Below are positions 1,863 through 59,983 of a DNA stretch of 64,000 bases, piece after piece. Source of the stretch: Solirubrobacter phytolaccae (GTDB lineage Bacteria > Actinomycetota > Thermoleophilia > Solirubrobacterales > Solirubrobacteraceae); the NCBI RefSeq assembly GCF_027587195.1, contig NZ_JAPDDP010000018.1, positions 1 to 64,000 of the forward strand. Direction: 5' to 3'. Under the pieces are notes generated by a model, which was not told the DNA's origin, ran no database searches, and saw only the letters and a program-made list of their open reading frames with translations. The position numbers and the translations under genes were made by a program. Each line of letters opens with the position of its first letter. Positions within the stretch are counted from its first letter, which is position 1.

Positions 1863-4109
1863 ATGCACAGCAAGATGCGGCGAGTGGGCCTCGCCGCGGC
1901 GGCGGTCACCGCCATGCTGGTCACCGCGCCGACCGCGTTCGCGCAGACGGCACCGGTACTCGAGGGCGGCAAGACGTCGCCCGTGTTCGGCTACGCGGAC
2001 TCGATCCGCGAGCGCGTCTTCATCGAGTCCCCGTACGACTCCGACAAGAACGGCGTCAAAGACGTCATCGCGATCGACATCAAGCGTCCCAAGGCCACGA
2101 GCACGGGCCTGAAGGCGCCGGTGATCATGGATCCGAGCCCGTACTACTCGACGCTCGGGCGCGGCAACGAGTCGCAGCTCAAGCGCGACATCGACGGCGA
2201 CGGCCTGCTGGACCAGTGGCCGCTGTTCTACGACAACTACTTCGTCCCGCGCGGCTACGCCGTGATCCTCATGGACATGATCGGGACCAACAACTCGACC
2301 GGCTGCCCGACCGTCCACGACGAGTCGGACAACCTCAGCGCCAAGATCGTGATCGACTGGCTCAACGGCCGGACGAAGGGCGTGGACAAGAATGGCGTTG
2401 AGGTCAAGGCCGACTGGCACAACGGCAAGACCGGCCTCATCGGCAAGTCCTACGACGGCACGCTGGCCAACGCGGTCGCCGCGTCCGGCGTCGAGGGCCT
2501 GACGACGATCGTCCCGATCTCCGCGATCGCGTCCTACTACGACTACACGCGCACCAACGGCGTCATCCAGCGCGACAACAACTACGTCGCCAGCCTCGCG
2601 CTCGCGGTCACCAACCCCGACCGGCGCGACTACTGCAAGCCCGTGCGTGACGCGCTCGACGCCGCCGACGGCGACGACACCGGCGACTACAGCGACTTCT
2701 GGGCGGTCCGCGACTACCTGAAGGACCTCGACAAGGTCAAGGCGAGCGTGTTCATCACGCACGGCGTCCAGGACGAGAACGTCCGCGCCGACCACTTCTC
2801 CAAGTGGTGGTACGGGCTCAAGGAGCGCGGCGTCAAGCGCAAGCTGTGGATCCTGCGCCAGGGCCACGTCGACCCGTTCGACGGCCGCCGCGCGGTCTGG
2901 GTGGACACGATCCACCGCTGGTTCGACCACGAGCTCTACGGCATCCAGAACGGGATCGACAAGGAGCCCGCCGTCGACATCGAGGAGTCCGTGGACAACT
3001 GGAAGTCCTACACGGACTGGCCGATCCCGGGCACGCAGATGACCAACGTCTTCCTGCAGAGCAACGGCGCGACGCAGACGCTCGGCGGTAGCTCGGGCGG
3101 CACGGACGCGACCACGACGTTCCGCGACAACAACCTGAGCGAGAACAACTACCTCAACCTCAACAGCAACGCGACGCAGCAGGGCCAGAAGCGCATGTTC
3201 CTGTCGCCGCCGCTGAAGAAGCCGCTGCGCCTCTCCGGCACGGCGATCGTCGACCTGCAGGCCTCGCTGAGCAAGGTCTCGTCGAACCTGACGGCGTTCA
3301 TCGTCGACTACGGCCCGAGCACCCAGACCAACCGCAGCGGCGACGGCGTCTCGACGCCCGCCAACGCGACCGTCTCCTGCTGGGGCGAGTCGGTGCCGGA
3401 CGACACGGGCTGCTTCAAGGAGACCACCAAGCCGCAGCAGACCGTCACCCAGTGGCGCGTCACCAAGGGCATGATGGACTCCAAGAACCGCAACTCGCTG
3501 CGGGTCCCCGAGCCCGTCACGATCGGCTCGTCCTACAAGTTCAGCTGGCCGATGCTGCCGGAGGACTTCACGTTCGCCGCCGGCCACCGCGTCGGCATCG
3601 TCATCGGCGCGAACTTCAGCGGCTACGGCTCCACCAACGGCCTGACGCAGACCGACGTCACGATCGACACCAAGTTGTCGAAGATCCAGCTGCCGATCGT
3701 CGGCGGCTACAGCGCGGCCGTGCAGGCCGGCCTGTTCGGTGAGGCGGTCGAGGCTCCGGTCGGCGGCACCGTCCCGGCCACGCTGAGCCTCGCGCTCGGC
3801 GCGCCCGCGACGTTCGGCGCCTTCACGCCGGGCATCGACAAGGAGTACACGGCCCAGACCGACGCGACGGTGATCTCCACCGCCGCCGACGCGGCCCTGA
3901 CCGTGAGCGAGCCCGGCCACCTGGCCAACGGCGCGTTCACCCTCTCCGAGCCGCTGCAGGTCGCGTTCAGCAAGGCGGCCTGGACCGGCCCGACCTCCAA
4001 CGAGAAGGTCGACATCACGTTCAAGCAGCTCGTGAAGAAGACCGATCCGCTCCGGACCGGCGCGTACAGCAAGACGCTGACCTTCACGCTCAGCACCACC
4101 ACGCCGTAG
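1863..4109 (+). CDS. Secreted Xaa-Pro dipeptidyl-peptidase-like protein, family S15
   Basis: 748 residues from ATG 1863, chosen for the AAGGAGGG site. Residues 1-27 are a Sec signal peptide (RRVGLAAAAVTAMLV, ending AFAQT). The S15/CocE alpha/beta-hydrolase domain follows: nucleophile Ser196 in GLIGKSYDGT, Asp304 in HGVQDENV and His335 in LRQGHVDPFDG. A jelly-roll domain (~400-630) is usual in the family. Residues ~634-748 form an extra domain, starting GGTVPATLSLALG and ending KTLTFTLSTTTP, that recurs at the end of the M6 protease at 5560-8235. The family releases dipeptides after proline, or cleaves esters such as cocaine or cephalosporin esters. Secretion and the neighbouring Dpp importer favour peptide scavenging. 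Confidence 0.85.
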   Translation: MHSKMRRVGLAAAAVTAMLVTAPTAFAQTAPVLEGGKTSPVFGYADSIRERVFIESPYDSDKNGVKDVIAIDIKRPKATSTGLKAPVIMDPSPYYSTLGRGNESQLKRDIDGDGLLDQWPLFYDNYFVPRGYAVILMDMIGTNNSTGCPTVHDESDNLSAKIVIDWLNGRTKGVDKNGVEVKADWHNGKTGLIGKSYDGTLANAVAASGVEGLTTIVPISAIASYYDYTRTNGVIQRDNNYVASLALAVTNPDRRDYCKPVRDALDAADGDDTGDYSDFWAVRDYLKDLDKVKASVFITHGVQDENVRADHFSKWWYGLKERGVKRKLWILRQGHVDPFDGRRAVWVDTIHRWFDHELYGIQNGIDKEPAVDIEESVDNWKSYTDWPIPGTQMTNVFLQSNGATQTLGGSSGGTDATTTFRDNNLSENNYLNLNSNATQQGQKRMFLSPPLKKPLRLSGTAIVDLQASLSKVSSNLTAFIVDYGPSTQTNRSGDGVSTPANATVSCWGESVPDDTGCFKETTKPQQTVTQWRVTKGMMDSKNRNSLRVPEPVTIGSSYKFSWPMLPEDFTFAAGHRVGIVIGANFSGYGSTNGLTQTDVTIDTKLSKIQLPIVGGYSAAVQAGLFGEAVEAPVGGTVPATLSLALGAPATFGAFTPGIDKEYTAQTDATVISTAADAALTVSEPGHLANGAFTLSEPLQVAFSKAAWTGPTSNEKVDITFKQLVKKTDPLRTGAYSKTLTFTLSTTTP

Positions 4110-4117
4110 CCCTCACC

Positions 4118-4149
4118 GGTGGGCGCCGGCCTGTTCGCCGGCGCCCACC
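4118..4149 (+). terminator. Perfect 13-bp hairpin after the S15 gene
   Basis: GGTGGGCGCCGGC (4118-4130) pairs perfectly with GCCGGCGCCCACC (4137-4149) around a CTGTTC loop, starting eight bases after the stop. There is no T-tract, which is common for GC-rich actinobacteria. It probably ends the peptidase transcript. Confidence 0.6.
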
Positions 4150-4170
4150 CCGGGTACTGTGCAGCCCGGA

Positions 4171-4446
4171 ATGGAACGGCTCCGCCAGATCGGCACGGTC
4201 ATCGGTTGCGTCTGGGGCGGCGGGATCCTCGGGCGTCTGATCTCGGATTGGATCCTCGGATTGGACCGCGGCTGGGTCCGGGCGACCGTGATCGTCTTCA
4301 TGCTGATCGGGCTCGCCATCGGGATCTCCGCCGCACGCGAGCTCGAGCCGTGGAACGCGCGGGACCGGCGCGACGCGAAGATCGGCTGGGGGATCGTGCT
4401 CGCCTTCGTCGCGCTGATCGCCGTGTCGGCGGTGGTGGCAGGATGA
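4171..4446 (+). CDS. Small membrane protein, three predicted TM segments
   Basis: 91 residues from ATG 4171; a GTG at 4159 would add four residues. There are hydrophobic segments near residues 5-25 (IGTVIGCVWGGGILGRLI), 38-55 (ATVIVFMLIGLAIGISA) and 72-90 (IGWGIVLAFVALIAVSAVVAG), with a charged loop ELEPWNARDRRDAKI before the last. I do not recognise a family. Its stop overlaps the next start as ATGA, so the two small membrane proteins are probably translationally coupled and may act together. Confidence 0.6.
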   Translation: MERLRQIGTVIGCVWGGGILGRLISDWILGLDRGWVRATVIVFMLIGLAIGISAARELEPWNARDRRDAKIGWGIVLAFVALIAVSAVVAG

Positions 4447-4604
4447 ACGCCGACCGCCGCGACACGATCCTCGTCGTCATCGCGCTGCTCGGCGCGCTCC
4501 TGAGCTTCTGGATCCCGATGCCGTGGGGCGCGATCCCCGCCGCGATCACGCTGCTGATCGCGGGCGCGGCGCTGATCCGCAGCCGCCGCGCCCGCGACCG
4601 CTAG
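4443..4604 (+). CDS. 53-residue two-TM membrane protein
   Basis: ATG 4443 overlaps the previous stop (ATGA). The product has two hydrophobic helices (TILVVIALLGALLSFWIPM and WGAIPAAITLLIAGAALI) and a basic tail RSRRARDR, giving a hairpin with both ends inside. No family recognised. The overlap and continued membrane character, not homology, make it credible as a gene. Confidence 0.5.
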   Translation: MNADRRDTILVVIALLGALLSFWIPMPWGAIPAAITLLIAGAALIRSRRARDR

Positions 4605-4605
4605 C

Positions 4606-5157
4606 TCAGTCGCGCACGAGCGCCTCGAGCTCGTCCTCGAGCACTCCCCGCTCGACGCCGCCCGTCCACCCGCGCAGGAGCTTGCCGCCCGGCGCGACGA
4701 GCACCACCGCCGGCGGCGTGCGCACGGCGTACTGGCGCCACTTCTTCAGGTCCGGATCGATCCCGACCGGATAGCCGACCTTGTGGTCGGTCAGCCACGG
4801 GCGCAGCTTCTCCTTCGTGTCCTTCCCGGCCACGCCGACGAACGCCACCTTGTCGCCGTAGCGCTCGCCCATCGCCGCGAGCGTGTCCTGCTGCGCGGCG
4901 CAGCGACTGCACCAGGAGGCGAAGAAGAACAGCACCGTGGGCCGGTCGCGCCACAGCGTGGCCACGTCCAGCTTGGTGTCGTCGAGCAGCGTCAGCTCCA
5001 GCGGCGGGCTCTTGGCCTCGGTCTCTGCCGGGGCGTAGCTCACGCCGTCCGGCACCGGGCCCGGCACGGAGCCCTTGCCGCCGTCGTAGGTCGCGTCGTC
5101 GCCACCACAGCCGGCGACGACCACCGTCGCCGCCAGCACCGCAAGCCATCGCCTCAA
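4606..5157 (-). CDS. TlpA/ResA-type thioredoxin lipoprotein
   Basis: 183 residues. The N-terminus is a lipoprotein signal with lipobox VVAGC (Cys17), so it is anchored outside the membrane. A thioredoxin fold follows with the redox motif FFFASWCSRCAAQ (Cys83, Cys86) and a TPP cis-proline in RTPPAVVLVAPGG. The family reduces or resolves disulfides in exported proteins, often cytochrome c apoproteins, or transfers electrons. The start is TTG at 5157, overlapping the upstream TGA as TTGA, so it is coupled to the lipoprotein gene before it. ATG at 5149 is out of frame. Confidence 0.85.
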   Translation of the reverse strand: MRRWLAVLAATVVVAGCGGDDATYDGGKGSVPGPVPDGVSYAPAETEAKSPPLELTLLDDTKLDVATLWRDRPTVLFFFASWCSRCAAQQDTLAAMGERYGDKVAFVGVAGKDTKEKLRPWLTDHKVGYPVGIDPDLKKWRQYAVRTPPAVVLVAPGGKLLRGWTGGVERGVLEDELEALVRD

Positions 5158-5546
5158 TTGAGCGTCACCATCGCCTGTCCGTCCTTGAACCCGAACTCCT
5201 GCGGCGCGCTGTCGCCCAGCCGCAGCGTGTAGCGCCCGGACGCCTCGACGTCGACGCGCACCCGGAAGGTGCAGTTCGTCGGCACGCGGTCGACGCCCGG
5301 GTCGTGGTTGAGCAGCGCCGTCGCCTCACCCTCCGGCAGGACGTCCTCCTCGAGGATCTTGCCCGACGCGTCGGCGAGCGTGAACTCCGCTGTGGCGTGG
5401 GCGTAGAGGAACGGCTGGCCGCCCGCGCACGGCTCACCGAGCTCCCGCAGGACGCCGTCCGGAGCGACGACGCGCAGCACCAGGCCCTGCGGCCAGGACG
5501 GCTTCTCGCCGCCGCAGCCCGTCAACAGGGCCGCGGCGGCGAGCAC
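5154..5546 (-). CDS. Small lipoprotein of unknown function
   Basis: From GTG 5546 the product is ~130 residues: LAAAALLTGCGGEKP is a lipoprotein signal with lipobox LLTGC, followed by a mostly beta domain with two further Cys (GEPCAGGQP and PTNCTFRV) and ending GQAMVTLN. The open frame continues upstream into the M6 gene, but that part encodes an Arg/Ser-rich shadow, so the first sensible start is the GTG 13 bases after the M6 stop. No family recognised. It may be co-transcribed with the M6 protease and the TlpA-like gene. The cysteines could be a client of that thioredoxin, which is speculation. Confidence 0.6.
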   Translation of the reverse strand: MLAAAALLTGCGGEKPSWPQGLVLRVVAPDGVLRELGEPCAGGQPFLYAHATAEFTLADASGKILEEDVLPEGEATALLNHDPGVDRVPTNCTFRVRVDVEASGRYTLRLGDSAPQEFGFKDGQAMVTLN

Positions 5547-5559
5547 GACGACGGGCCCG

Positions 5560-8235
5560 CTACGGGTTGGTCGTCGAGAGCGTGAACGTGAGCGTCTTGG
5601 TGTAGGCACCCGTGCGCAGCGGGTCATTGAGGCCGATCGTCTGCTTGAAGTCCAGCGAGACCTCTTCGCTGGAAGTCGGCTTGTCCCAGGTCAGCAGGTT
5701 CAGCGAGGAACCCACATTGTTGTACGCGGTGCCGGTGTTGCTGGCGTTGCGCGCGCGAGCCTGCAGCGGCTGCGGGAGCGAGAACGAGCCGTTGACCAGG
5801 TGGCCGGTGTTGACCGAGGAGGCGTCGGACACGCTCAGGAGCGCGTCGCCGGCCGTCGAGGTCACGGTCGCCTTCGTGTCGGCGAAGTAGTCACGCGCGA
5901 CGCCCGGCTGGAACGCGCCGAACGAGGCGGGAGCGCCGAGCGAGAGCGCCAGCGTCGCCGGCACGTTGCCGCCGACCGTGCCGTCGGTCTGCGTCGAGGC
6001 GCAGGTCGCCGTGGCGGTCTTGCTCGGATCGCTGACCGAGGTCGCGGTCAGCGTGACGGTGTTGCTGGCGCCGGTGCCCTTCGTGATGTACACGGGGACG
6101 TCGACGCTCTCGCCGAACTTCGCGGTGGCGAGCGCGTTGCGCAGCTCCGCCTTCCAGCCCTGGCCGGAGGCCGAGGCGGAGAGGCGGTAGATGTCGTTGT
6201 TGAACGACGCCGTCTCGTCCTGCGGGTGCAGCGCCGGGTCGGTCGCCGCGGCGACGCCGGTGTTGGTGACCTTGAACGTGCACGACTCCAGCGCCGTGCC
6301 CGGCTGGCTCGCGACGCTGACGCCGCGCGTCTGCGGGCCCGCGCCCTTCGGGTTCTGGACGCCGAGGACGTAGTGCAGCAGGCCGCGTGCGTCCTTGTAG
6401 GTGTCGACCACGTAGAACTGCAGGTCGTTCGGCTCGTCCTTGAGCTCGTACGAGGAGCCCGAGTTCGTGCCGGCGTGGAACAGCGCGTCGTTGAGCTGCC
6501 GGTAGTCGGCGGCGGTGCGCATGATCGGGGTGCCGTCGGGCTTGTAGTAGTCGACGGTGTTCATGTCCTCGGGATGCGCGTCCTTGACCCAGGTGAAGCA
6601 GTTGTAGCCGCAGGAGCTGCCCTCGGTGCCGCGCGTCGCGCCGGCCGCCCAGGCCTTGTTCTTGGCGATCAGCACCCCCTGGTCGGCCCCGAAGGAGCCG
6701 TAGCCGATGCGCTGGACGGTCTCGAGCGAGTAGTTCGTCCAGGTGCCGCCGTCGCACAGCGGGTCGGTGTTGATGTTGCACGCCGGGGTCTTGTCGACCG
6801 GGGCGGCGCCGTCGAGGAAGACCTGCACGCCGGCGCGGATGCCGGCCGGGAGCGGCTCGGCGTTGGCCGCGCGCGCGACCACGTCCGCGACCGCGAGACC
6901 CGTCTGCGCGAGCCCGTTGCGGTTGAGCCGCAGCACGGCCGAGTTGGGCACGAAGCCCATGCCGACCTTCGAGCGCAGCGTGTGCTCGGCGCCCATCGAC
7001 CCGCCGTACAGCGCCGGCACCTGCCAGCGGTTGTGCGGGCCACCCGGGCCGTTGAAGGACCCGCGGTCCATCATGTCCCAGGTGCCCGAGCCGACACGGC
7101 GGTACGGCGTCACGTACGGGTTGTTGTTGTTGTCGCCGACCGAGAAGATGTTGTGGCTGATCTCGTGCGTGATCGTGCCCGAGCTCTCGCCCTGGCGGAT
7201 CGAGGACTCGCCCCACTGCTGCTGGCCGGCGAACCACGACGTCCAGTCGACGTAGCGGGTGGCGACCCAGTTGGGCTTCTTCGGGTTCGGGTTGCCCCAG
7301 ACCTCGTGCGGGATCTGCTCCTTGTTCTGGAACATGATCTCGCCGAACTCCTGCCACACCGACGTCTCGTCGTAGCCGGCGTACATGTACAGGTGCACGG
7401 TCTGCCCGCAGTTGGTGGCCGCGCAGCCGGTATCGGCGTTCCAGAGCGCGGTCGCGTCCTGGTTGAACTGGTTGCTGGAGAAGTTGCAGTCCTGCACCGC
7501 GGTGCCGGCCGCGACGGTGATCGGCACGCTGACGGTGATGTGGGTCGAGTCCGGGATCGCCGTGACGGTCTTGTTGCCGGTCGGGGTGACCGCGCCGAAC
7601 TGGATCACGTCACCGACGTAGAAGAACGCCGAGTCCTCGACGGTGATCGTCTGCGTCGCGGTGTGCGCGCCGACGACGGTCGTCGCCGCCGGGCAGCCGT
7701 TGCCCGTGGGCTTGCCGGACTGGCCGATGTCGCTGACGCCGTACTGGTAGAGCCGCTTCGGCATCCGGTACGGGCCGTAGGTCTTGACGTCGGTGACGCC
7801 GACCCGGCCGCCGGACTGCTCCATCCAGTAGCCGTTGATCGTGTGCCCCTGGTTGAGCGGGCTCGGCGTGTTGTAGAAGTCCGCGTAGAACTTCGGCACG
7901 TCCTCGCGCTTGACCGGATCGATCTGCGGGTTGCCGAACGGGTCGCTGTTCTTCTTCTGCGTGATGACGAACGGCTGGTCCTCGAAGTCGAACGCGACCA
8001 GCGCGATCGTGACCTTGCGGACGCTCGGGACGGCGCCGTTGGTCGCCCAGTCCACGCCGGGGATCGGCTTGTAGTCCTGGAACGTCATGTCCTGCTGATC
8101 CTGGACCTTCTGCGGATCAAGCGGCGGCGGGACCGCGGCCTGCGCTACGGCAGGCAGTGTGACGCCGACGGCGAGTGCAGCCATCACCGCGGCGGACCGA
8201 CACGAGCTGAAAATCCTCACAACACCCTCTCTCAT
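5560..8235 (-). CDS. Secreted M6-family (immune inhibitor A-like) metalloprotease
   Basis: 891 residues. A signal peptide (AAVMAALAVGVTLPAVAQAA) leads into an M6 catalytic domain: FYNTPSPLNQGHTINGYWMEQSGG region, zinc motif HEISH (357-361) in GTITHEISHN, and the downstream Met turn GTWDMMDRGSF. A Thr/Val-rich beta insertion (~183-250, including TITVEDSAFFYVGDVIQFG) separates the N-terminal part from the zinc site. The last ~137 residues match the C-terminal domain of the S15 peptidase, ending KTLTFTLSTTNP. The start is ATG 8235. GTG 8220, with GAGAGGG just before it, is an alternative that keeps the signal peptide. It probably degrades extracellular protein. Confidence 0.85.
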   Translation of the reverse strand: MREGVVRIFSSCRSAAVMAALAVGVTLPAVAQAAVPPPLDPQKVQDQQDMTFQDYKPIPGVDWATNGAVPSVRKVTIALVAFDFEDQPFVITQKKNSDPFGNPQIDPVKREDVPKFYADFYNTPSPLNQGHTINGYWMEQSGGRVGVTDVKTYGPYRMPKRLYQYGVSDIGQSGKPTGNGCPAATTVVGAHTATQTITVEDSAFFYVGDVIQFGAVTPTGNKTVTAIPDSTHITVSVPITVAAGTAVQDCNFSSNQFNQDATALWNADTGCAATNCGQTVHLYMYAGYDETSVWQEFGEIMFQNKEQIPHEVWGNPNPKKPNWVATRYVDWTSWFAGQQQWGESSIRQGESSGTITHEISHNIFSVGDNNNNPYVTPYRRVGSGTWDMMDRGSFNGPGGPHNRWQVPALYGGSMGAEHTLRSKVGMGFVPNSAVLRLNRNGLAQTGLAVADVVARAANAEPLPAGIRAGVQVFLDGAAPVDKTPACNINTDPLCDGGTWTNYSLETVQRIGYGSFGADQGVLIAKNKAWAAGATRGTEGSSCGYNCFTWVKDAHPEDMNTVDYYKPDGTPIMRTAADYRQLNDALFHAGTNSGSSYELKDEPNDLQFYVVDTYKDARGLLHYVLGVQNPKGAGPQTRGVSVASQPGTALESCTFKVTNTGVAAATDPALHPQDETASFNNDIYRLSASASGQGWKAELRNALATAKFGESVDVPVYITKGTGASNTVTLTATSVSDPSKTATATCASTQTDGTVGGNVPATLALSLGAPASFGAFQPGVARDYFADTKATVTSTAGDALLSVSDASSVNTGHLVNGSFSLPQPLQARARNASNTGTAYNNVGSSLNLLTWDKPTSSEEVSLDFKQTIGLNDPLRTGAYTKTLTFTLSTTNP

Positions 8236-22491: not shown

Positions 22492-23241
22492 ATGCCAGCT
22501 CAGGCCTACGCCGGCAAAGAGTGCGTCTGCCAGTACCGCCGCGGGATCTGCGACCAGACCTGCGTGCGCGACATGCTCGACACGCCGTTCTACATCGCGT
22601 GCCTCAAGCTCACGGGGCGCCGCTGCGTCGTCGTCGGCGGTGGGGAGATCGGGCTCGAGAAGGTCGAGGGCCTGCTGGCCTGCGACGGCCGGGTCGTGCT
22701 CATCGCGCCCGAGATCGAGCCCGCGCTCGAGAAGCTCGCCGAGGAAGGCTCAATCGAGTGGATCCGCCGCCGCTACGAGCGCGGGGACCTCGAGAAGGCG
22801 TTCATGGTCATCGCGGCCACGAACGACACCGACGTGAACATCGGCGTCTACAACGACGCCGAGGAGCGGGCGATGCTCGCCAACGTCGTCGACGTCCCGC
22901 CGCTGTGCAACTTCATCCTGCCCGCGATCGTGCGCACCGGCCCGCTGGCGATCGCGATCTCGACCGCTGGCGCCTCACCCGCGCTCGCCAAGCGCATGAA
23001 GGCCCAGATCGCCGAGACGTTCGGGCCCGAGTACGCGCGGCTGGCGGTCATGCTCAACGACGTCCGCGGCTGGGCGAAGGGCACGCTGCCCACCTACCAG
23101 GACCGCAAGGCGTTCTTCGAGAGCATCGTCAACGGCGATCCGGACCCGATCGCCCTCCTCCGTGCGGGGGAGGAAGCGACCGTGCTCGAGCTGATTCGCA
23201 CGGCGCAGCGCCAGCACGAGCCGGCGAAGTCCGCACTCTGA
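22492..23241 (+). CDS. Precorrin-2 dehydrogenase / siroheme synthase N-domain (CysG-N/Met8 type) with Cys-rich N-terminus
   Basis: 249 residues. From residue ~33 ([20 protein letters not shown]) it is the NAD-binding domain that oxidises precorrin-2 to sirohydrochlorin, with [29 protein letters not shown] and the [14 protein letters not shown] segment that positions substrate. The first 32 residues add four cysteines in [18 protein letters not shown], not part of standard CysG. They could bind metal or an Fe-S cluster. The CobA-HemD fusion at 29.8 kb supplies precorrin-2, so siroheme or haem via the siroheme route is the likely product. Confidence 0.85.
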
Positions 23242-23290
23242 CACTTGTCAGGTAGAAGACGGTGAGCCTCCGGCCGATCACTGGGGCGAG

Positions 23291-24940
23291 ATGCTCCGGC
23301 GTTCCCTGCTGCTCGCTTGCCTGCTCGCCTTCGGCGCGGCGGTCCCCGCACGCGCCCAGACGGCCTCGCAGCTGATCGTCGGCTACAAGGCCGGCACGCC
23401 CGCGAGCGCGGTCCGCGCCGCCGCCGCTAGCTACGGCGCGAGCGTCCGCCGCATGGGTCTGCCGAACGCCTACGTGCTCACCGCCACCAGCGGGACCTTG
23501 GACACCAACCTCGTGATCCAGGACGCGCGCGTGTCCTGGGTGGAACCCGCCCGGCGCACGTGGGGCTCGGCGGTCACGCCGTTCCAGGACCAGTGGGGCC
23601 TGAACAACGTCGGCCAGTTCAACGGCACCAAGGAAGCCGACATCGACGTCGTGCGGGCGTGGTCCTTCGGCAGCTACGGCGCCGGCGTGCCCGTCGGCAT
23701 CATCGACTCCGGGACGAACTTCGTCCTGCCGCAGCTCGCCGGGATGAGCGTCTTCGCCAACCCCGGGGAGGCGGGCGCGAAGGCCACCAACCGGATCGAC
23801 GACGACGGCAACGGCTGCGTCGACGACGTGCGCGGGTGCGACTTCGTGGACGGCGACGGCGACCCGACCGACGCGAACGGCCACGGCACCACGACCGCGA
23901 GCGTCACGCTCGGCCCGTACGGCCCGTCGAACGTCGTCGGCATCGCGCCGCAGGCGACGCTGATGACCGGGCGCGCGCTCGACAGCGAGGGCTACGGCAC
24001 CACGGCCACCGCCGCGTCCGCGATCGCCTACCTCGGCGCGATCGGCGCGCGGGTCGTGAACATCAGCCTGGTCGGCCCCGACTCGCTCGCCATGCGCAAC
24101 GCGGTCGCCGCCTACCCGAACACGCTCTTCATCGCCGCCGCCGGCAACGACGGCGCCGACAACGACGTCAGCGACTCCAGCTACCCGTGCGAGGACCCGG
24201 CGCCGAACGTGATCTGCGTCGGCGCGTCCACCCCGCTCGACTCGCTCTCGAGCTTCTCGAACTTCGGCGCCGCGTCGGTCGACCTCGTCGCGCCCGGCCA
24301 GCTCATCGCCGGCCTGCGCCTCAACGGCACCACGGGCTCCTACCGCGGCACGAGCTTCGCCGCGCCGATGGTCACCGGCACCGCCGCGCTGCTGTTCGCG
24401 GCCCGGCCCGGCGCCACCGTCGCGCAGGTCCGCGCCGCGCTCCTCGCGGGCGTCGAGCGCAAGCCCGCGTTCGCCGGCAAGGTCGTCACCGGCGGGCGCC
24501 TGAACGCCTACAACGCGCTCGCCGCGCTCCTCGGCGTCAGCCCCGCGCCGCGCCCGTCGACCCTCAAGCCGACCGGCCCCGCGGGTGGCTCCTCGGGAAC
24601 GACACCCACCACCCCGACCGCGCCGCCGACGCCGGCCACGACGCCCTGGACCACCGCCAGCGGGCTCCCGCACACGATCGACGTCAACGCCAAGGCCACG
24701 CTCAAGAAGAACAAGCTCAAGCTCACCCTCAAGTGCAAGGGCCAGCAGAGCTGCGAGGGGTCGGTCGCCGCGATCACCGGCAAGGCGAAGGCCTCCAACG
24801 CGGTTAGCTACGCGATCGCCGCGAACAAGTCGACGTCGGCCACGCTGACCGTCAAGCTGGCCAAGAAGGCCAAGACCGTGGCCGTCGCGATCACCGAGGA
24901 CGGCATGACCGTCCGCCACACGGTCAAGCTCAAGCGCTAG
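23291..24940 (+). CDS. Secreted subtilisin-like serine protease (S8)
   Basis: 549 residues. There is a signal peptide (LLLACLLAFGAAVPARAQT), an I9-like propeptide (~25-88) and an S8 catalytic domain: Asp139 in GIIDSG, His198 in DANGHGTTTASV, Asn286 in AAAGNDG and Ser355 in YRGTSFAAPMVTG. A Pro/Thr linker (~415-450) leads to a ~95-residue C-terminal domain with a Cys pair in LKCKGQQSCEGSV, the same type as the protein ending at position 371. It is exported and probably attached to or spaced from the cell surface by that domain. Confidence 0.88.
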   Translation: MLRRSLLLACLLAFGAAVPARAQTASQLIVGYKAGTPASAVRAAAASYGASVRRMGLPNAYVLTATSGTLDTNLVIQDARVSWVEPARRTWGSAVTPFQDQWGLNNVGQFNGTKEADIDVVRAWSFGSYGAGVPVGIIDSGTNFVLPQLAGMSVFANPGEAGAKATNRIDDDGNGCVDDVRGCDFVDGDGDPTDANGHGTTTASVTLGPYGPSNVVGIAPQATLMTGRALDSEGYGTTATAASAIAYLGAIGARVVNISLVGPDSLAMRNAVAAYPNTLFIAAAGNDGADNDVSDSSYPCEDPAPNVICVGASTPLDSLSSFSNFGAASVDLVAPGQLIAGLRLNGTTGSYRGTSFAAPMVTGTAALLFAARPGATVAQVRAALLAGVERKPAFAGKVVTGGRLNAYNALAALLGVSPAPRPSTLKPTGPAGGSSGTTPTTPTAPPTPATTPWTTASGLPHTIDVNAKATLKKNKLKLTLKCKGQQSCEGSVAAITGKAKASNAVSYAIAANKSTSATLTVKLAKKAKTVAVAITEDGMTVRHTVKLKR

Positions 24941-59272: not shown

Positions 59273-59983
59273 TCAAGCTGCCGATCCGCGAGGCTCGGAG
59301 CGCACGAGCCGCGCGAAAACCACGATCCGCTGGGCGGCGGAGTACAGGGGGTGACAGGCCGTCAGCACTAGCCGATCGTACGAGCGGTCGTCCACCACCC
59401 AGACGTCGGTCGGCTTGACGATCCGCGTTCGCTCGACCCGGTAGGTGAAGCGCCCGTAGGGCATCGTGACCACGATGTCGTCGCCCGTGCGCACCTTGTC
59501 GATCTTGCGGAACGGCGCGCCGTAGGTCGTGCGGTGGCCGGCGATGGCCACGGTGCCACGCTGGCCGGGCAACGCCGTGGACGGGTAGTGCCCGGGGCCA
59601 CGGCGCAGGTCGTCGGCGTTCGTGCCCTCGAGAACCACGCTGGAGAGTCCGATCCGCTCGATCCGCAGCCGCCCGACGGCGTCGCCGTCGTCCGTACGCC
59701 GGTCGAGCGCGCGCGCCGCGAAGGCGAGCTTCTTCTTCGGGTCCGGCAGCTTGACGATCGCCTTGCGTTCCACGGGCGTCAGCGGGATCTTCTCGAGCCG
59801 GTCGAGCTCGCCCGACAGCTCGTTCTGCTGGAAGTGGGCGTAGGTCGAGGAGACCGGCTCCTCCCACACGAGCGTCAGGAGCGCGTCGAGCAGCAGCAGC
59901 GAGCCGGCGATGATCAGCGCGTTCGCGAACCCGCGCAGGATCTTGCGCGCGCGACCCGGCCTGGCGGTGGAGGAAGCGCTCAT
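59273..59983 (-). CDS. Sortase (class D/E-like transpeptidase)
   Basis: 236 residues from ATG 59983. N-terminal anchor ALIIAGSLLLLDALLTLVW, a helical spacer, then the sortase barrel: ERIGLSSVVLEGTNADDLRR, His150 in TVAIAGHRTTYGAPF, Cys210 in LVLTACHPLYSA and Arg219 in AQRIVVFARL. It attaches proteins with a C-terminal sorting signal to peptidoglycan or pilins. Its substrate is not beside it. It overlaps the upstream M28-like gene by 4 bp. Confidence 0.92.
   Translation of the reverse strand: MSASSTARPGRARKILRGFANALIIAGSLLLLDALLTLVWEEPVSSTYAHFQQNELSGELDRLEKIPLTPVERKAIVKLPDPKKKLAFAARALDRRTDDGDAVGRLRIERIGLSSVVLEGTNADDLRRGPGHYPSTALPGQRGTVAIAGHRTTYGAPFRKIDKVRTGDDIVVTMPYGRFTYRVERTRIVKPTDVWVVDDRSYDRLVLTACHPLYSAAQRIVVFARLVRSEPRGSAA

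What the first reader, a model, noticed from the sequence alone, without database searches (positions are those of the whole stretch)
3762..5973. Two unrelated secreted proteases share a novel-looking C-terminal domain
The last ~115 residues of the S15 peptidase and ~137 of the M6 protease align from GG(T/N)VPATL to KTLTFTLSTT(T/N)P, with matching LGAPA(T/S)FGAF, HL(A/V)NG(A/S)F and DPLRTGAY(S/T)KTLTF. The M6 copy has a ~20-residue insertion. One domain fused to different catalytic folds suggests a sorting, cell-wall-binding or secretion module. The genes are convergent neighbours, so recent copying is possible.
Basis: seen in the sequence. Interest (0 to 1): 0.6.

Follow-up and report, generated by a model that had tools for sequence, protein, structure and literature searches.

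The report
C-terminal tag domain on 145 exoenzymes
A soil bacterium of the genus Solirubrobacter ends about 145 of its exported proteins, mostly unrelated digestive enzymes, with the same small unnamed domain at exactly the last residue, which looks like an address label that keeps or sorts the enzymes at the cell surface by a machinery not yet known.

Summary
The S15 and M6 proteins end in homologous domains (115 and 137 residues, 63% identical). In all 145 it is the last element of the protein, nothing follows it, and the last residue is always proline. At least 139 of the 145 carry a Sec-type signal peptide by a simple heuristic. The parts in front are unrelated (peptidases, glycosidases, ThuA, amidases, dehydrogenases). 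Pfam, NCBIfam and PDB sequences hold no model or match. AlphaFold2 gives a confident seven-strand beta-sandwich (pLDDT 96) closest to chaperone-usher pilin domains. High copy number is confined to Solirubrobacter; ten genomes of sister genera have one to three copies. The window pair is not a recent copy: each domain matches its own orthologue in a related species. Best reading: an uncatalogued C-terminal sorting or surface-retention domain, working like WxL domains or type IX CTDs but failing their membership tests. Function and partner are inferred, not shown.

The parts
1863..4109 (+). Secreted S15-type X-Pro dipeptidyl-peptidase (likely start ATG 1863) ending in the C-terminal domain
   Evidence: Peptidase_S15 E 1.3e-54 and PepX_C E 1e-25; orthologues in two congeners at 90% and 86% identity also end in the domain
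1863..1943 (+). Signal peptide of the S15 protein (MHSKMRRVGLAAAAVTAMLVTAPTAFA)
   Evidence: read from sequence; heuristic
3762..4106 (+). C-terminal domain, short form, 115 aa
4059..4106 (+). Last 16 residues GAYSKTLTFTLSTTTP: last beta strand and invariant final proline
   Evidence: alignment A2; final Pro in 145 of 145
5560..8235 (-). Secreted M6-type metalloprotease ending in the C-terminal domain
   Evidence: TIGR03296 77 bits, below its cut-off of 110.8; orthologue with domain in congener G002
8137..8235 (-). Signal peptide of the M6 protein (MREGVVRIFSSCRSAAVMAALAVGVTLPAVAQA)
   Evidence: read from sequence; heuristic
5563..5973 (-). C-terminal domain, long form, 137 aa; predicted seven-strand beta-sandwich
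   Evidence: AlphaFold2 pLDDT 96.2, pTM 0.88
5563..5610 (-). Last 16 residues GAYTKTLTFTLSTTNP: last beta strand and invariant final proline

Best explanation
The segment is a C-terminal sorting or retention domain shared by more than a hundred exported proteins of Solirubrobacter. The proteins leave the cytoplasm by an N-terminal Sec-type signal peptide (predicted). Outside the membrane the last 115-140 residues fold into a pilin-like beta-sandwich whose last strand (YxKTLTFTL) and free end (STTxP-COOH) complete the protein (fold predicted, position shown). A partner in the envelope, a receptor protein or a wall polymer, recognises this end and holds the enzyme at the cell surface or in the wall, so that degradative enzymes work next to the cell instead of diffusing into soil (inferred). 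I think non-covalent retention is likelier than cleavage: no membrane helix or tail follows the domain, so it does not have the build of a sortase-type signal, and the genus is Gram-stain positive. The partner is not encoded next to the cargo genes.
For: 145 copies in one genome, all with zero residues between domain and stop and all ending in Pro. The zero-residue tail also holds for every further copy examined in congeners, and the TTP-like end for those in sister genera except the distant small relatives. One copy per protein: non-terminal profile hits have E of at least 0.0036. 139 of 145 have a signal-peptide-like start, 133 of those have no further membrane segment, and lipobox-like motifs occur in only 2, against 14 of 89 secreted-looking neighbours without the domain. 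The parts in front match 53, 58 and 60 Pfam families in three batches, mostly extracellular hydrolases. Orthologous pairs keep the domain, with dN/dS 0.38 against 0.37 for the preceding 400 residues. The final Pro codon follows the Pro codon usage of these genes (CCG-dominated) and the 3' flanks are not conserved, so the constraint is on the protein. TGA, in general knowledge the leakiest stop, ends only 19 of 145 domain genes against 37 of 69 secreted neighbours (p 1e-9), as expected if an exact end matters. A homologous S15 protein of a sister genus (47% identical) lacks the domain, so catalysis does not need it.
Against: No localisation data exist; surface retention is inferred from architecture. 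No recurrent neighbour family points to a receptor or transporter. The TGA depletion could also come from descent of the copies from a TAG-ended ancestor. The fold match (Z 9.4 at 3.0 A over 126 residues) is to a very common beta-sandwich and shows no function.
Confidence: 0.55

Rival explanations
1. It is a secretion or processing signal like the type IX CTD: a dedicated translocon or protease reads the last beta-hairpin, moves the cargo outward and cuts the domain off, perhaps attaching the cargo to a glycan.
For: Type IX CTDs are also seven-strand Ig-like C-terminal beta-sandwiches whose last 22 residues carry the export signal (PMC4804311). They too sit on many unrelated cargos. Strict C-terminal position fits.
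Against: No type IX CTD (PF18962) match in the genome. Solirubrobacter is Gram-stain positive (PMC10722151), so no outer membrane is expected that would have to be crossed. No cleavage site or linker motif is evident beyond the LRTG that lies inside the domain.
Confidence: 0.2
2. It is an accessory substrate- or matrix-binding module (like a carbohydrate-binding module) that brings the enzymes to soil polymers, not an address label.
For: Many carriers also hold PKD, CBM6 and F5/F8 modules. Beta-sandwich folds are typical of such modules.
Against: Binding modules occur at any position and in tandem (general knowledge); this one is always single and always terminal, with an invariant last residue. 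Carriers include enzymes without polymer substrates (GDPD, metallophosphatases, amidases).
Confidence: 0.15
3. The domains polymerise by strand exchange, like pilins or TasA-type fibres, so the enzymes are built into a surface fibre or biofilm matrix.
For: The nearest solved folds are donor-strand pilins (CfaE Z 9.4, CsuA/B 8.7, FimG 7.9), and TLP-1b (7.8) and CanA (7.3) are also listed.
Against: The model is a confident sandwich with no recognised N-terminal donor peptide, though its geometry could not be inspected here. 145 different large cargos on one polymer seems unlikely.
Confidence: 0.07
4. The domain only protects: a stable fold ending in Pro blocks carboxypeptidases, of which this genome secretes many.
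For: About 13 secreted M14 carboxypeptidases carry the domain themselves. C-terminal proline resists many carboxypeptidases (general knowledge).
Against: A protective end would not need a whole conserved 115-residue domain with invariant internal residues (Y29, Q111, G122, Y124).
Confidence: 0.03

Closest known systems
WxL domain (PF13731) of Gram-positive bacteria
   Same: C-terminal, on secreted proteins. WxL domains of this same bacterial class end in YTSTWTFSLVSGP, very like YSKTLTFTLSTTTP. A model of such a WxL domain has the same nearest solved folds, the chaperone-usher pilins (FimA Z 8.1, PapA 7.7).
   Different: No PF13731 match in the genome; profile comparison gives 2.6% probability over 14 columns; the first WxL motif is absent; no DUF916 partner; genes are dispersed on hydrolases, not in WxL clusters.
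Type IX secretion C-terminal domain (PF18962 and relatives)
   Same: C-terminal seven-strand beta-sandwich on many unrelated secreted enzymes; the end of the domain is the signal (PMC4804311)
   Different: No profile match in the genome; different phylum and envelope; no sequence match to any PDB chain
PEP-CTERM, MYXO-CTERM and LPXTG sorting tags
   Same: C-terminal tag on dozens of exported proteins of a lineage
   Different: Such tags are a short motif, a membrane helix and a basic tail (PMC11980579 for MYXO-CTERM; the others from general knowledge); here a folded domain ends the protein and no helix follows
Chaperone-usher pilin domains (CfaE, CsuA/B, FimG)
   Same: Nearest solved fold, Z 9.4-7.9
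   Different: 10-13% identity in the aligned rows quoted; no fibre context known; pilins are completed by a donor strand (general knowledge)

Membership tests
WxL domain (PF13731) | Match to the WxL profile | tested here: not met
   0 matches in the window's genome and in congeners G001 and G002, while 22 of 249 class genomes and Lactococcus lactis ring
WxL domain (PF13731) | Two WxL motifs | tested here: not met
   Last strand has FxL at the second site; no Trp at the first. Distant single-domain relatives do have SWTLSV-type strands.
WxL domain (PF13731) | Cluster with DUF916 (PF06030) and small/large WxL genes | tested here: not met
   0 PF06030 matches; carriers are dispersed and have no common neighbour
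WxL domain (PF13731) | C-terminal position on secreted proteins | tested here: met
WxL domain (PF13731) | Shared fold | tested here: inconclusive
   Both models match chaperone-usher pilins best; no direct comparison of the two models was possible
Type IX secretion CTD | Match to Por_Secre_tail (PF18962) | tested here: not met
   0 matches in the genome; in the control set only Bacteroides ihuae rings, below the cut-off
Type IX secretion CTD | C-terminal beta-sandwich with the signal at its end | tested here: inconclusive
   Sandwich predicted; signal role untested
Type IX secretion CTD | Type IX translocon genes | not tested
   Not searched; the papers found describe the system from Bacteroidota
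LPXTG, PEP-CTERM or MYXO-CTERM tags | Motif followed by membrane helix and basic tail at the C-terminus | tested here: not met
   0 residues after the domain in 145 of 145, and the domain itself is a soluble-looking beta-sandwich
Chaperone-usher pilin | Pilin fold | tested here: inconclusive
   Z 9.4 to the CfaE pilin domain, rmsd 3.0 over 126 residues; Z near 8 is common for such models
Chaperone-usher pilin | Usher and chaperone genes, donor strand | not tested
   not searched

The most novel reading that the evidence does not exclude
Solirubrobacter has its own protein-sorting system: an undescribed receptor or processing enzyme reads the exact C-terminus (last strand plus TTxP) of an unnamed beta-sandwich domain on roughly 70 to over 150 exported proteins per genome, a Gram-positive counterpart of the type IX CTD.
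Probability: 0.4. Interest if true: 0.8.

Novelty: new variant of a known kind. Interest (0 to 1): 0.62.

Why it matters
The domain has no entry in Pfam or NCBIfam although one genome uses it on about 145 proteins. It probably marks a large part of the exoenzyme set of a common soil genus. If it is an address label, the last residues of a folded domain suffice to sort a hundred unrelated enzymes in a Gram-positive bacterium, and the unknown partner becomes a direct target for genetics. It would also offer a compact tag for displaying enzymes on actinobacterial cells, and a way to annotate many proteins of unknown function as exported.

Tried and rejected
WxL membership: rejected by profile search, profile-profile comparison, missing motif and missing partner, though the last strand and nearest folds are alike. 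Type IX CTD: no profile match. Recent copying between the two window genes: rejected. A mobile DNA cassette that includes 3' flank: rejected, only 8 short matches among all pairs of 150-nt downstream flanks. Partner encoded next door: no neighbour family recurs beyond common ABC transporters, regulators and likely miscalled ORFs. Domain on plasmids: none. Literature on the motif or on sorting in Solirubrobacter: none found (for the Solirubrobacter genome paper). RgpB CTD structures were not among the listed fold matches, which decides nothing.

Full report
Observation. The S15 and M6 proteins of the window end in segments at 3762-4106 (+) and 5563-5973 (-). They align with 72 of 115 identical residues; the alignment score is 336 where 500 shuffles reach at most 16. 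Neither Pfam nor NCBIfam has a model that matches the segment. A scan of 40 diverse members against Pfam gives only scattered weak hits, the best E being 0.0022. The PDB sequence set has none.

Extent. A profile of the two copies finds 150 scored matches in the same 7.74-Mb genome. After fetching the loci these resolve into 145 proteins. In all 145 the domain ends exactly at the stop codon, and the last residue is always Pro, mostly in TTTP, TTNP, TTQP or TTAP. Some fifty further copies from congeners and sister genera and 28 proteins of congener G002 show the same zero-residue tail; only the distant small relatives in L171 end without the TTxP. No protein holds a second full copy: non-terminal hits have E of at least 0.0036. 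Congener G002 has 108 copies and G005 at least 150, the limit of what was scored; G003 has 69 by the two-sequence profile. Named close relatives are Solirubrobacter taibaiensis and S. soli.

Distribution. Of 399 genomes of the class, 11 have a match, and of 396 of the phylum 4, all in one family. Within the family 17 of 146 genomes match, seven of them the Solirubrobacter genomes with many copies; the other ten have one to three. Two of these single copies sit on an HtaA-like protein (PF04213 E 4e-5 and 0.0056). More distant relatives in other genera (in L222, L223) are small secreted single-domain proteins without the TTxP end, with SWTLSV-type strands. So the domain may descend from a small secreted beta-sandwich protein and was multiplied as a C-terminal module in one genus (inference). 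Limits: the phylum was sampled, the named-species scan finds only close relatives, and phyla outside Actinomycetota were not searched with the profile.

What carries it. A simple heuristic finds a signal peptide in 139 of 145 carriers; several of the rest are cut by the fetched stretch. 133 of the 139 have no later membrane segment, and lipobox-like motifs occur in 2, both doubtful. The parts before the domain match 53, 58 and 60 Pfam families in three batches of 47, 48 and 48 proteins: ThuA 14, M14 carboxypeptidase 13, glucose/sorbosone dehydrogenase 13, alpha-L-rhamnosidase 7, S15 6, amidase at least 5, and single or few cases of S8, M36, M64, M12B, GH10, GH67, GH106, alkaline phosphatase and others. 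Between the two window genes lie two lipobox-bearing proteins without the domain, which shows that not every exported protein has it. No neighbour family recurs around the carriers beyond common transporters, regulators and likely miscalled ORFs.

History. The two window copies are hardly closer (62%) than average (58%); the S15 copy is 91% identical to one on another protein. The S15/M6 pair exists in congener G002 with the domain on both. In 25 pairs of putative orthologues drawn from domain-bearing genes of G002, 20 have the orthologue's domain as best match, and pooled dN/dS is 0.38 for the domain and 0.37 for the preceding 400 residues. Because the G002 genes were chosen by having the domain, loss in G002 would not be seen in this set. 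It shows mostly vertical descent under purifying selection, with some cases where a paralogue is closer (the orthologue's domain exceeds the best paralogue's in 15 of 25), so occasional exchange between copies is possible. An S15 homologue of a sister genus, 47% identical, ends in different modules and lacks the domain.

The end. The final Pro codon follows the Pro codon usage of the same genes (CCG 123 of 145), stop codons vary and the 3' flanks are unrelated, so the protein end is what is kept. TGA stops are rare: 19 of 145 against 37 of 69 secreted neighbours and 86 of 155 other neighbours (p 1e-9 and 5e-15). If read-through is harmful this is expected; descent from a TAG-ended ancestor is the alternative. 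The neighbour sets come from a heuristic ORF choice, and the 145 genes are not independent.

Fold. AlphaFold2 on 40 members gives pLDDT 96.2 and pTM 0.88, seven strands, the last at residues 129-133 of 137. Nearest solved structures: CfaE pilin domain Z 9.4 (3.0 A, 126 residues), CsuA/B 8.7, FimG 7.9, TLP-1b 7.8. A model of WxL domains from the same class (pLDDT 84) also has FimA and PapA pilins as its nearest matches, Z 8.1 and 7.7. Such Z values are only modestly informative.

Comparison. WxL proteins carry a C-terminal domain thought to hold them to the wall (PMC9772566), and the last strand of WxL domains in this class (YTSTWTFSLVSGP) resembles YSKTLTFTLSTTTP. But the profile, the first motif, the partner and the gene context are absent. 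Type IX CTDs are C-terminal seven-strand sandwiches whose last 22 residues are the export signal (PMC4804311), but no PF18962 match exists and Solirubrobacter is Gram-stain positive (PMC10722151). So the domain probably works like these without being shown to belong to either.

Verdict. Shown: a large, unnamed, strictly C-terminal, conserved domain on predicted exported proteins, nearly restricted to one genus in its expanded form. Predicted: its fold and the signal peptides. Inferred: recognition of the end by an envelope partner and retention at the surface (0.55).

Noticed in passing
window 59303-59668 (-): The only sortase (PF04203, E 2e-34) found in the whole genome lies in this window; its substrates are unknown. 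LPxTG occurs somewhere in 11 of the 145 carriers, not at their ends.
   Followed up: partly
window 4606-5157 (-) and 5154-5627 (-): Two lipobox-bearing ORFs between the two protease genes, the first looking like a thioredoxin-type lipoprotein; both lack the domain.
   Followed up: no
145 domain genes of G000 (L057-L161 and window): TGA stop codons are strongly depleted in genes carrying the domain (13% against 54% in secreted neighbours). Whether this is selection for an exact end or ancestry of the copies is open.
   Followed up: partly
L225:7034-8326, L226:4813-6099: In two sister genera the domain occurs once, on an HtaA-like (haem-binding type) protein, perhaps an older use.
   Followed up: partly
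L183-L194: WxL (PF13731) matches occur in 22 of 249 genomes of this actinobacterial class, mostly on small secreted proteins, far from the Firmicutes where the family is mainly described.
   Followed up: partly
window 23195-24937 (+): A 581-aa secreted-looking ORF with a signal peptide and no domain, ending GMTVRHTVKLKR.
   Followed up: no
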